A stretch of DNA of 64,000 nt, taken from NCBI RefSeq assembly GCF_030646115.1, contig NZ_JAUSMX010000002.1, positions 124,001 to 188,000 of the forward strand, given 5' to 3'. The stretch's first letter is position 1. Each line of letters opens with the position of its first letter. Under the pieces are notes generated by a model. The model did no database searches. It had not been told where the DNA came from and worked only from the letters and a program-made list of their open reading frames with translations. The translations under genes and the position numbers were made by a program. Below are positions 54,904 through 58,404 of the stretch, one piece after another. This stretch comes from Fluviicoccus sp. (lineage in GTDB: Bacteria > Pseudomonadota > Gammaproteobacteria > Pseudomonadales > Moraxellaceae).

Positions 54904-57900
54904 ATGAAACGCATGCTGATTAATGCGACGCATTCGGAAGAAACCCGCGTCGCCCTCGTAGACGGACAGCGTCTGTACGATTTTGATCTTGAACACCACG
55001 CCCGCGTCCAGAAAAAAGCCAACATCTATAAAGGACGCATCACCCGCGTCGAACCCAGCCTTGAGGCAGCATTTGTCGATTTCGGCGCTGACCGTCACGG
55101 CTTCCTGCCGCTGAAGGAAATCGCCCGCGAATACTTCAACAAGAATCCCCGTGATGTCGGTCGCGTCACCATCCGCGAAGCGATCCAGGAAGGCCAGGAA
55201 ATCATCCTCCAGGTCGAAAAGGAAGAGCGTGGCAACAAGGGCGCCGCCCTCTCCACCTTCATCTCGCTGGCCGGTCGCTATCTGGTGCTGATGCCGAACA
55301 ACCCCCGCGCAGGTGGCATTTCCCGCCGCATTGAGGGTGAAGAGCGCGAAGAGCTGAAGGAAGCGCTGAACTCCATCAACGTTCCCAACGACATGGGTGT
55401 AATCGTCCGCACCGCAGGACTGGGCCGCTCCCCGGAAGAACTGCAGTGGGATCTGGATTACCTGCTCAGCCTGTGGAAGTCGATCAACGAAGCCGCCGTC
55501 GGCAAGACTTCGCCCTTCCTGATCTATCAGGAGTCGAATGTCATCATCCGCGCCATTCGTGACTATCTGCGTGACGACATCAACGAAGTGCTGATCGACA
55601 GCGAACCCGCCTTCAACCAGGCCATGGAGTTCGTGCGCAAGGTGATGCCGCATTACCAGAGTAAGATCCGCCTTTATAAGGATGCGGTGCCGCTGTTCAA
55701 CCGCTACCAGATCGAGAGCCAGATCGAGACGGCTTACCAGCGCGAAGTGAAACTGCCTTCCGGCGGCTCCATTGTCATCGATCCGACTGAGGCCCTGGTT
55801 TCCATCGACATCAATTCGTCCCGCTCCACCAAAGGCAGCGATATCGAAGAAACCGCCCTCAACACCAACCTCGAAGCGGCTGAAGAAATCGCGCGTCAAT
55901 TGCGCTTGCGTGATATCGGCGGCCTGATTGTCATCGACTTCATCGACATGGTTCCGCCCAAGCACCAACGCATGGTGGAAGACAAGTTGCGTGATTCGCT
56001 GGCCATGGACCGCGCCCGCATCCAGATTGGCCGTATTTCCCGTTTCGGTCTGCTGGAGTTGTCGCGTCAGCGCCTGCGTCCTTCGCTGGAAGAGACCACC
56101 GGTCTGGTCTGCCCGCGCTGCAACGGCACCGGCGTCATCCGCGACGTGCGTTCGCTGGGCCTGTCGATCATGCGGGTGATTGAAGAAGAAGTACTGAAAG
56201 ATCGCAGCGCTGAAATCCGCGCTCAGGTGCCGGTCACGGTCGCAGCGTTCCTGCTCAATGAAAAGCGCGCCGCCCTGGCCACCCTGGAAAGCCGCAGCGG
56301 TGTACGTGTGGTCATCCTGCCGAATCCGCATCTGGAAACCCCGCACTACGAAGTCACCCGTTTCCGTGATGACCAGGTGGAAGAAGGCGCCGAAGCTCCG
56401 TCCTCCTACCAGTTGGTCGAAGCCTTCCAGCCGACAGTGGAAGACAACGGCTTGAACCGTCGTGAAGAACGTTCGCCTGCCCGTCGTCAGGAACCGGCCG
56501 TGAAGATGGCTCAACCGGAAACGCAGGCCCCCGCCCCCCGCCAGCGCGATGAAAAGGCTGCCGCCCGCCCGGTAGAAGCTCCTGTTGCACCTGCACCCGT
56601 CGTGGATGCCCAGGCTGAAGGTTCACCGACTCGCAAAGGCTTCTTTGCCTGGTTTGCCAACCTGTTCAACAACGGACAGAGCGCTGAAGATGAAGTGAAT
56701 GCCAAGCTGCAGGCCATCAGCGGCGAGACCGTAACGCAGGCTCAGACTTCGGTTGAAGAAGCCCCGGCCGCTCCTGCGCCCTCCCGCCAGAACCGTGACC
56801 GTAATGGCCGCAACCGTAATGGCGACCGTTACCGTAATGACCGCCAGGGTGAGCGTCAGGACAGGCCGGAACGCGCCGAGCGCCAGGAACCCCGTCAGGA
56901 CACCGCCGCCATGGCAGGTTCTTCCGAGGCCGGTGATCAGCCGCAACCCAATGCTAACCGCCGTGAACGTCCGGTGCGTGAAAACCGTGAGCCTCGCGAA
57001 AACCGCGAACCTCGGGAAGCACGTGAGCCGCGCGAGGGTCGGGAAAACCGTGAACCGCGTGAGCCACGCGACCGTCAACCGCGCCAGCCGCGTCAGCCAC
57101 GCCCCGAGTTGCAGGCTGACAGCGTAGTCCATGCAGAGTACCCGATTGCGGTCACCGAGTCGGTTGAACAAGGCCTGGTGGCGCCGGTTGAAACCGATGT
57201 CATTGCAACGGTTGAAGGTGAGGAGCCGCAACAGCGCCGCCCCCGCCGTGACCGTTTCGGCAATCGTCGCAATAACCGTGGCCCTCGCGAGCGTGACAAC
57301 CGTGTACTGGTGGATGCGGGCCTGATGGCTGCTCCCGAAGGTGGTGATGCGCCGCTGATGGCCGATGCCCTGGAGAGCCCGGTTGAGCCGGTCAACACTC
57401 CGTCGGTGTCCATGCCGGCCATTCCGGTCGGTGCGATGAACCCCATCGTGGCTGACCTGATTGCTGCAGAAGCTGAAGCCGAGGCTGGTCTTGCTGCTGC
57501 CGCGACTCCACAAGCTGAGCCTGCTGACTCTGCGATTGAAGCTCCACTGCCGGTGACGGAGTCCGAACCGGAACCGGTTGTAGCTCCTGTTGCTGAGGCG
57601 CCGGTGGCCGAACCGGTACCGGAAGCGCGTTCGCAGAGTACAGTGACGCGGATGGTGGAAGATGTTCCGGCTGCGGCAGCGGTTGCTGAAGTAACCCCGG
57701 AAGTTGAGGAGCAACCCAAGCGCGCCGCCAACGACCCGCGTGAGCGTCGCCGCCGGGAACGTGAAAATGCCGAGGCGGCAGTTCGCGCTGAAGCTGAACG
57801 CGTGGCCCGTGAAGCCGAAGAAGCAGCCCGACTGGCAGAAGAGGCATTGCGCCCGGCTCCGGTTGTTGAACCGGAAGCATCTGTTGCCGTTGTTGAGGCC

Positions 57901-58404
57901 GTGGCCGTAGAAGCTGTGGCAGCCGCCAAGACCTGGCATACCGTGGGCGAATACATTGCCGCCTTCCTGCCGGGACAACCGGCTCCTGTCAGCAGCACGG
58001 AAGTGATTTCTGCGTTCTTTGCAGCGCAGAAAGCCCAACTTTCCGCCGTTGAACCTGCCGCCGAGTCTGTTTCCGTGGGTACGGCAGCTGAAACGGTTGT
58101 GGCAGATGCACCTGCGGAGATCATTGCAGTCGAGCCTGATGTCGAGACTCCGGTTGATACGGTCGTTGCAGAACCGGTGGCAGATGCTCCGACTGAAGCC
58201 GTTGCTGAGGTGGCCTTGGAAACCCCAGCGGTTGTTGAAGCAGCGGCCCCCGCCACTGCGCTGGCCGTTCCGTCTTGCACGGTCGCCGAGTACGTGGCGA
58301 CCTGGTTGCCGGACCAACCGAAACCCGTCACAGGCGCGGAAGTTATTTCCGCCTTCTTCGCGGCCATGAAGAAGCACGCCGAAACGGTTGCCAATCCGGA
58401 CTAA
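54904..58404 (+). CDS. rne: Ribonuclease E
   Basis: 1166 residues. The catalytic half (1-about 520) has [18 protein letters not shown], an S1 domain ([23 protein letters not shown]), Mg-binding Asp in [13 protein letters not shown] and VIDFIDM, and the zinc-link cysteines in CPRCNGTG. The C-terminal half is low-complexity: an Arg-rich repeat block (REPREN-type, about 680-740) expected to bind RNA, Ala/Glu/Pro/Val-rich linkers, and two near-identical modules starting at Thr1013 and Thr1126, each with an EVISAFFAA core. It is the core of the RNA degradosome at the inner membrane. The scaffold half is unlike that of E. coli. Confidence 0.96.

What the first reader, a model, noticed from the sequence alone, without database searches (positions are those of the whole stretch)
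57931..58402. Duplicated module at the C-terminus of RNase E
Two blocks starting at Thr1013 and Thr1126 share TVxEYxA, then LPxQPxPV, then EVISAFFAA and a Lys, roughly two-thirds identical, in an otherwise low-complexity tail. The second ends at the protein terminus. In E. coli the last part of RNase E binds PNPase; here the repeats look like tandem docking motifs for a degradosome partner. I do not know of a description of this motif.
Basis: partly seen in the sequence, partly recalled or inferred. Interest (0 to 1): 0.6.

Follow-up and report, generated by a model that had tools for sequence, protein, structure and literature searches.

The report
Duplicated helical docking module in RNase E
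The tail of this bacterium's main RNA-cutting enzyme carries two copies of a small, probably helical module that recurs in the same enzyme in related bacteria and probably docks an unidentified partner of the RNA-degrading machine.

Summary
Residues 1013-1049 and 1126-1162 of RNase E (gene 54904-58404, 1166 aa) are 22/37 identical, 20/29 over the core. A self-scan of the tail scores them 106, against at most 70 in 300 shuffles.

The block is a module of about 40 aa. By an iterated profile it is in 37 of 62 RNase E proteins that I collected from the window's family, in 8 of 15 genera, always C-terminal to an NDPR motif; 22 readable tails lack it. Records of the sister genus are titled Agitococcus or Moraxellaceae. 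An order-level search gave no hit of RNase E length outside the family. AlphaFold2 predicts a two-helix hairpin.

Most likely it is a degradosome docking microdomain, duplicated here. PNPase is a poor candidate: in P. aeruginosa it binds NDPR, and RhlB binds AR1; like motifs lie upstream. The partner is unknown. PNPase, RNase R, Hfq and PcnB occur with and without the module.

A 2014 survey lists an unnamed 25-aa Acinetobacter motif that is probably one form of it; I did not see its logo. The link to genus g15 (Acinetobacter-like) rests on position, not score. A new variant of a known kind.

The parts
54904..58404 (+). rne, RNase E, 1166 aa; catalytic domain about residues 1-490, noncatalytic scaffold tail after that
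   Evidence: Pfam RNase_E_G 1.4e-102, RNase_E_G_Thio 3.6e-32, S1 1.5e-10; NCBIfam PRK10811 886 bits (under its cut-off of 908), TIGR00757 547.7 bits (cut-off 325.95)
56632..56673 (+). [14 protein letters not shown], residues 577-590, probable membrane-targeting helix
   Evidence: position checked; conserved block in four g1+g5 tails (rank 6); the assignment as MTS is by recalled analogy
57235..57297 (+). Arg-rich [21 protein letters not shown], residues 778-798, AR1-like (RhlB and RNA site in P. aeruginosa)
   Evidence: position checked; in the most conserved 25-mer of four g1+g5 tails; function by analogy with PMC11964227 (passages)
57709..57858 (+). NDPR motif and following charged stretch, residues 936-985 ([16 protein letters not shown]...), likely PNPase site
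   Evidence: PNPase binding of NDPR shown in P. aeruginosa, PMC11964227 (passages)
57940..58050 (+). module copy 1, residues 1013-1049
   Evidence: AF2 helices at model residues 8-15 and 25-43, pLDDT of the first four blocks of ten 79-93
58051..58278 (+). AEPV-rich linker between the copies, predicted disordered
   Evidence: entropy 2.80 bits over residues 1051-1117; pLDDT blocks 45-52, rising to 62 before copy 2
58279..58401 (+). module copy 2, residues 1126-1166, to the C-terminus
   Evidence: AF2 two-helix hairpin, mean pLDDT 78.6, pTM 0.54; pLDDT blocks 84-93 in the tandem model

Best explanation
The two blocks are copies of a helical-hairpin microdomain of the RNase E scaffold, seen in my searches only in the window's family (Moraxellaceae), and they most likely dock a protein partner of the RNA degradosome other than PNPase. 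Shown: the sequence duplication; recurrence in RNase E of related genera, C-terminal to NDPR in 37 of 37 proteins; absence from 22 readable tails. Predicted: two short helices joined by a turn, carried on disordered linkers. Inferred: the hydrophobic positions (T-V-G-E-F/Y-I...L-P and V-I..F..A) form a binding face; a partner in the cell docks there; two copies raise avidity or recruit two molecules. The partner is not identified.
For: Chance excluded. Same module in RNase E of all 4 sampled g5 genomes, 2 copies in two and 1 copy in two. A profile of these blocks and the window's (8 in all) found the RNase E tail of genus g9 in a 249-genome six-frame search, best E 3.3e-5 for a genome. A 12-module profile then hit g7 (4e-10) and g10 (3e-9) in a 62-protein set. 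Leave-one-genus-out profiles, best score per protein: g9 31-48 bits, g7 23-29, g10 48, g12 27-36, g11 8-20, against shuffle maxima of 1.4, 0.8, -0.3, -0.2 and 4.4; for the window with both g1 and g5 left out, 9.1 and 6.5 against 4.9. Iterated, 44 copies in 37 of 62 proteins. The first module follows NDPR in 37 of 37. AF2 hairpin. Among 25-mers of the tail the module ranks 3rd in four g1+g5 proteins, 5th in g10+g12 and 1st in g15.
Against: No binding data. No candidate partner follows the module: PNPase 19/19, RNase R 18/19, Hfq 18/19, PcnB 19/19 genomes, 10 with and 9 without the module. In g9, g11 and g7 the module is not among the eight best conserved 25-mers of the tail. For g15 the leave-out score does not beat shuffles (best 2.5 against 2.2; five of nine below zero; in two of nine the best hit is not at the module), and the best ungapped 23-mer between g15 and g9 modules is weak (mean 22, maximum 43). 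The second copies of g7 and g9 score 3-20 when left out. Conservation over the linker between the window and G004 is modest (module 1 17/34, module 2 18/38, linker 20/54). Twenty-two readable family tails do without it.
Confidence: 0.58

Rival explanations
1. The hairpin binds itself: modules from neighbouring chains or the two copies of one chain pair into a helical bundle and cluster RNase E tetramers, feeding condensate-like foci.
For: Predicted two-helix element of about 40 aa with hydrophobic positions; two copies in one chain in 7 of 37 module-bearing proteins; no tested partner follows its presence. The resemblance to dimerisation hairpins such as RIIa is recalled only.
Against: The tandem model has pTM 0.36, which gives no support for the two copies packing together.
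Confidence: 0.2
2. It is an extra PNPase site: NDPR and the hairpin together make one bipartite PNPase-binding surface, the two copies serving the PNPase trimer.
For: The first module lies C-terminal to NDPR, the PNPase SLiM of P. aeruginosa, in 37 of 37 module-bearing proteins (PMC11964227 passages); PNPase is encoded in 19 of 19 genomes tested.
Against: 22 of 22 readable module-less tails keep NDPR without the module, and mutating NDPR abolished direct PNPase binding in P. aeruginosa, whose quoted NDPR site has no such module. In the window module 2 lies 183 residues after NDPR.
Confidence: 0.12
3. Old leftover of repeat expansion: the modules are drifting repeat units of the tail with no dedicated role.
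For: RNase E tails gain and lose tandem repeats readily (PMC4435900 passages); copy number varies from 0 to 2; modest conservation over the linker in the nearest pairs.
Against: The blocks are less biased than the linker and keep aromatic residues, which PMC4435900 says are underrepresented in the biased regions (passages); third codon positions differ while the protein pattern holds; the module is recognisable on both sides of the deepest split of the tree.
Confidence: 0.07

Closest known systems
Motif 26 of Ait-Bara et al. 2014 (PMC4435900): 25 aa, Acinetobacter only, unnamed
   Same: Noncatalytic tail of RNase E; width 25; in nine g15 proteins the best conserved 25-mer of the tail is the module segment (mean 0.92)
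   Different: Identity not verified, as the logo and supplements were not seen. The passages read do not link it to Psychrobacter or other genera. That MEME run allowed at most one copy per protein, so a duplication would not show
NDPR SLiM (motif 12), PNPase site of P. aeruginosa RNase E (PMC11964227)
   Same: Same part of the tail, same order, protein-docking element
   Different: Different sequence; present separately upstream of the module
Motif 22 of PMC4435900: 23 aa, Acinetobacter and Psychrobacter
   Same: Listed for RNase E tails of two genera of the family
   Different: Probably not the module: in 63 of 63 g15 x g9 pairs the best shared 23-mer is the IEQMVNTGA-type segment near residue 580-690; genus names of g15 and g9 are recalled
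E. coli PNPase-binding end of RNase E
   Same: C-terminal position
   Different: The E. coli sequence quoted in PMC11964227 does not resemble the module by eye; no Pfam family beyond catalytic domains and one sub-threshold hit was listed for the whole protein, and none for the 8 modules

Membership tests
RNase E (Rne/Rng family) | S1, RNase E/G catalytic and thioredoxin-like small domains | tested here: met
   the E. coli-type equivalog PRK10811 is 22 bits under its cut-off
RNase E scaffold microdomain / SLiM | Discrete conserved element in the noncatalytic tail | tested here: met
   conservation rank high in g1+g5, g15 and g10+g12 but not in the top eight in g9, g11, g7
RNase E scaffold microdomain / SLiM | Binds a defined protein or RNA partner | not testable with these tools
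   no interaction data; no multi-chain prediction offered
Motif 26 of PMC4435900 | 25-aa motif of Acinetobacter RNase E tails | tested here: inconclusive
   best conserved 25-mer of g15 is the module segment; the published logo was not seen; g15 module not above shuffles by score
NDPR PNPase-binding SLiM | NDPR sequence within the element | tested here: not met
   the only NDPR of the window protein is at residue 943, outside both blocks
Named Pfam or PDB domain | Significant profile or fold match | tested here: inconclusive
   no Pfam match for any of 8 blocks; PDB profile best E 0.062; Foldseek best E 4.4; VIA best Z 2.2, rmsd 3.5, 42 aligned; PHROGs and PADLOC not searched
RIIa-type dimerisation hairpin | Homodimeric four-helix bundle | not tested
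   recalled analogy only

The most novel reading that the evidence does not exclude
The module is a small folded domain that defines a family-specific degradosome: in Moraxellaceae it recruits an RNA-metabolism protein not known as a degradosome subunit, or self-assembles RNase E into bodies, and was lost in one group of genera and doubled in others to tune that recruitment.
Probability: 0.3. Interest if true: 0.62.

Novelty: new variant of a known kind. Interest (0 to 1): 0.42.

Why it matters
Degradosome composition differs between bacteria through fast-changing docking motifs in the RNase E tail. For this family, which includes Acinetobacter and Moraxella (recalled taxonomy), five searches of the held library listed no paper whose title or abstract start describes RNase E tail partners. 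A defined 40-aa module with natural zero-, one- and two-copy relatives gives a direct handle: remove it and ask which protein leaves RNase E.

Tried and rejected
Hits outside RNase E with the first profile: the g13 hit that I read out (L139) looks like ribosomal protein L11 methyltransferase (recalled pattern). I take it as chance, and by inference the other weak hits in g13 and at G000:C15 in the window genome; I fetched stretches of three of those but did not read them out. g15 hits in open frames of about 540-610 aa, covering mostly profile positions 17-45 with E 0.016-0.4 in the listed rows, were taken as chance and not identified.

Order-level search: 36 of 293 genomes matched at E <= 0.05. 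Ten are of the window's family; the other 26 have best E 0.005 and open frames of at most 619 aa, shorter than any complete RNase E collected here. I did not identify these ORFs. Other orders were covered only by the pattern-based scan, which found 4 loci, all titled Agitococcus or Moraxellaceae, and which missed g9, so it is insensitive.

PDB by sequence and by fold (Foldseek; VIA-align): no convincing relative; this does not show the fold is new. The PutA match (E 0.0058) covers part of module 1 and mostly the biased linker and is rejected.

Partner by co-occurrence: PNPase 19/19, RNase R 18/19, Hfq 18/19, PcnB 19/19. The one genome without an RNase R or Hfq match is G026, 93% complete and lacking the module. 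No discrimination. RhlB, RhlE and enolase were not searched. PMC11617691 (passages) says Hfq tails are long in Moraxellaceae and cites work in which Hfq co-localises with RNase E; it says nothing on this module in those passages.

Order of duplication: a tree of 8 short modules pairs the two window copies (support 0.80) and the two G004 copies (0.88) but not those of G030. Too little signal to say whether the doubling is old or repeated.

Phage mimic: the only two matches of a g15 module in 50,697 phage records are annotated 'rne' on records of about 220 kb titled Acinetobacter phage, probably host chromosome.

Selection and dropped rows: of 95 genomes with a catalytic-domain match I collected RNase E from the window and 60 others chosen to span genera, plus G158 because it was the best g9 hit; 62 proteins. 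So 37 of 62 is not an unbiased frequency. Three (G012, G079, G007) are cut off or broken before the end of the tail and are counted neither way; 37 present and 22 absent remain. G030 is in two pieces around an N run; only its C-terminal piece was used. Of 15 loci read out, eight on the minus strand were misread by my script and gave nothing; six showed the module in RNase E and one was L139. One search printed 7 of 63 pairs; one search counted all 63.

Full report
What is there. The gene at 54904-58404 (+) encodes RNase E, 1166 aa, with the usual catalytic domains up to about residue 490. The tail holds, in order, a probable membrane helix (residues 577-590), Arg-rich stretches with an AR1-like block (778-798), AEPV-rich sequence, an NDPR motif (943) and then the two blocks. 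The blocks start at Thr1013 and Thr1126, are 22 of 37 identical without gaps, and stand far above shuffled tails (106 against at most 70 in 300). Only 15 of 37 third codon positions agree, so the likeness is kept at protein level.

Who has it. The window genome belongs to family f1. Four records of its genus g5 are titled Agitococcus (two) or Moraxellaceae bacterium (two), so f1 is taken as Moraxellaceae. All four sampled g5 genomes carry the module at the end of RNase E: two copies in G004 and G030, one in G019 and G061. A profile of the eight g1 and g5 blocks (A1) searched against 249 family genomes hits RNase E of genus g9, best E 3.3e-5 for a whole genome. Six of these loci read out as IRGTVGEFIxAxLP..., about 300-320 aa before the C-terminus. 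A profile of 12 modules extends to g7 and g10, and weakly to g11 and g12. Iterated, it finds 44 copies in 37 of 62 collected RNase E proteins: g1 1/1, g5 4/4, g7 4/4, g9 7/7, g10 2/2, g11 7/7, g12 3/3, g15 9/9; none in g2 (7), g3 (3), g4 (2), g6 (3), g14 (1) or the 6 readable g13 tails; g8 (1) and two g13 proteins are unreadable.

How safe the homology is. Each genus was left out of the model and its tails scored against 52-81 shuffles. g9, g7, g10 and g12 score far above (23-48 bits for the best hit of each protein, shuffles at most 1.4), g11 above (8-20 against 4.4), and the window moderately above with both g1 and g5 left out (9.1 and 6.5 against 4.9); g5 gives best scores of 5.2-16.0 against 0.5. 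The second copies of g7 and g9 are weaker: 19.6, 18.2, 12.1 and 3.0. For g15 the best score, 2.5, is no better than the shuffle maximum of 2.2, five of nine proteins score below zero, and in two of nine the best hit lies elsewhere; g15 and g9 modules share no strong ungapped 23-mer (mean 22, maximum 43). There the case is positional: the block sits between the two NDPR motifs, where the module lies in the sister genera, and it is the best conserved 25-mer of the g15 tail (0.92). The counts for g15 therefore come from an iterated profile that had already taken g15 in.

Anatomy and history. In all 32 module-bearing proteins of g7, g9, g10, g11, g12 and g15 the order is NDPR, module, second NDPR; three of four g7 proteins and one of seven g9 proteins have a second module after the second NDPR. 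In the window and g5 one NDPR is followed by one or two modules. The genera g2, g3, g4, g6 and g13, nearest to g1 and g5 in a catalytic-domain tree, have NDPR but no module (21 of 21 readable tails), as has the single g14 genome. Since the module occurs on both sides of the deepest split, presence in the ancestor and loss in one group is the simpler reading. The tree is midpoint-rooted, however, and the node joining the module-less genera has support 0.46. Outside the family, none of 26 matching genomes in an order-level search of 293 has its match in an open frame of RNase E length.

Structure. With 42 aligned modules AlphaFold2 gives two helices, model residues 8-15 and 26-42, mean pLDDT 78.6, pTM 0.54. 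In the 160-aa tandem, predicted with 15 rows, both modules are confident (pLDDT blocks 79-93) and the linker is not (45-62); pTM is 0.36, so nothing is said about packing between copies.

How it most likely works. Shown: a conserved, repeated element in the scaffold tail, less biased than its surroundings. Predicted: a helical hairpin. Inferred: a docking surface for a degradosome partner. PNPase is disfavoured because the SLiM shown to bind it in P. aeruginosa is NDPR, and RhlB uses AR1 there (PMC11964227, passages); like elements exist upstream in this protein. The module is thus an addition to that set. Its partner is open: PNPase, RNase R, Hfq and PcnB are encoded with and without the module (10 and 9 genomes; [quoted passage not shown] Self-association is the main rival.

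Literature. PMC4435900 (passages) mapped 30 MEME motifs with at most one occurrence per sequence. Motif 22 (23 aa, Acinetobacter and Psychrobacter) is most likely the IEQMVNTGA-type segment, the best shared 23-mer in 63 of 63 g15 x g9 pairs. Motif 26 (25 aa, Acinetobacter) is probably the g15 form of the module. I could not see the logos. The passages of PMC6538622 (one from the abstract) speak of the catalytic domain of A. baumannii RNase E, not its tail. PMC11617691 (passages) deals with Hfq of A. baumannii. Five searches of the held library (15 of 18 papers listed) listed no paper whose title or abstract start describes partners of an RNase E tail in this family.

Verdict. It is a new variant of a known kind (RNase E docking microdomains), with one form probably noted before without function.

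Noticed in passing
RNase E of g9, g11, g7 (e.g. L146, L147, L098, L107): Other conserved segments of the RNase E tail: SYKNMIENVAEQLLP-type and FNLTTPK-type near the C-terminus, and NYGYxPL between module and second NDPR.
   Followed up: no
RNase E C-termini of g15, g10, g12: RPRRPRGRPPKK-type, AT-hook-like basic end at the C-terminus of these RNase E proteins.
   Followed up: no
PcnB of G063, G006, G010: The open frame of poly(A) polymerase is 658-762 aa in these g9, g7 and g11 genomes against 450-591 aa in the other 16 tested, suggesting a long extra tail.
   Followed up: no
CAKLQF020000005.1 and CAKLQH020000005.1 (phage collection): Records of about 220 kb titled Acinetobacter phage carry an annotated rne gene; probably chromosomal contigs labelled as phage.
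   Followed up: no
G019:C22:52555-54516: A second RNase R-like stretch with three stop codons, a possible decayed paralogue.
   Followed up: no
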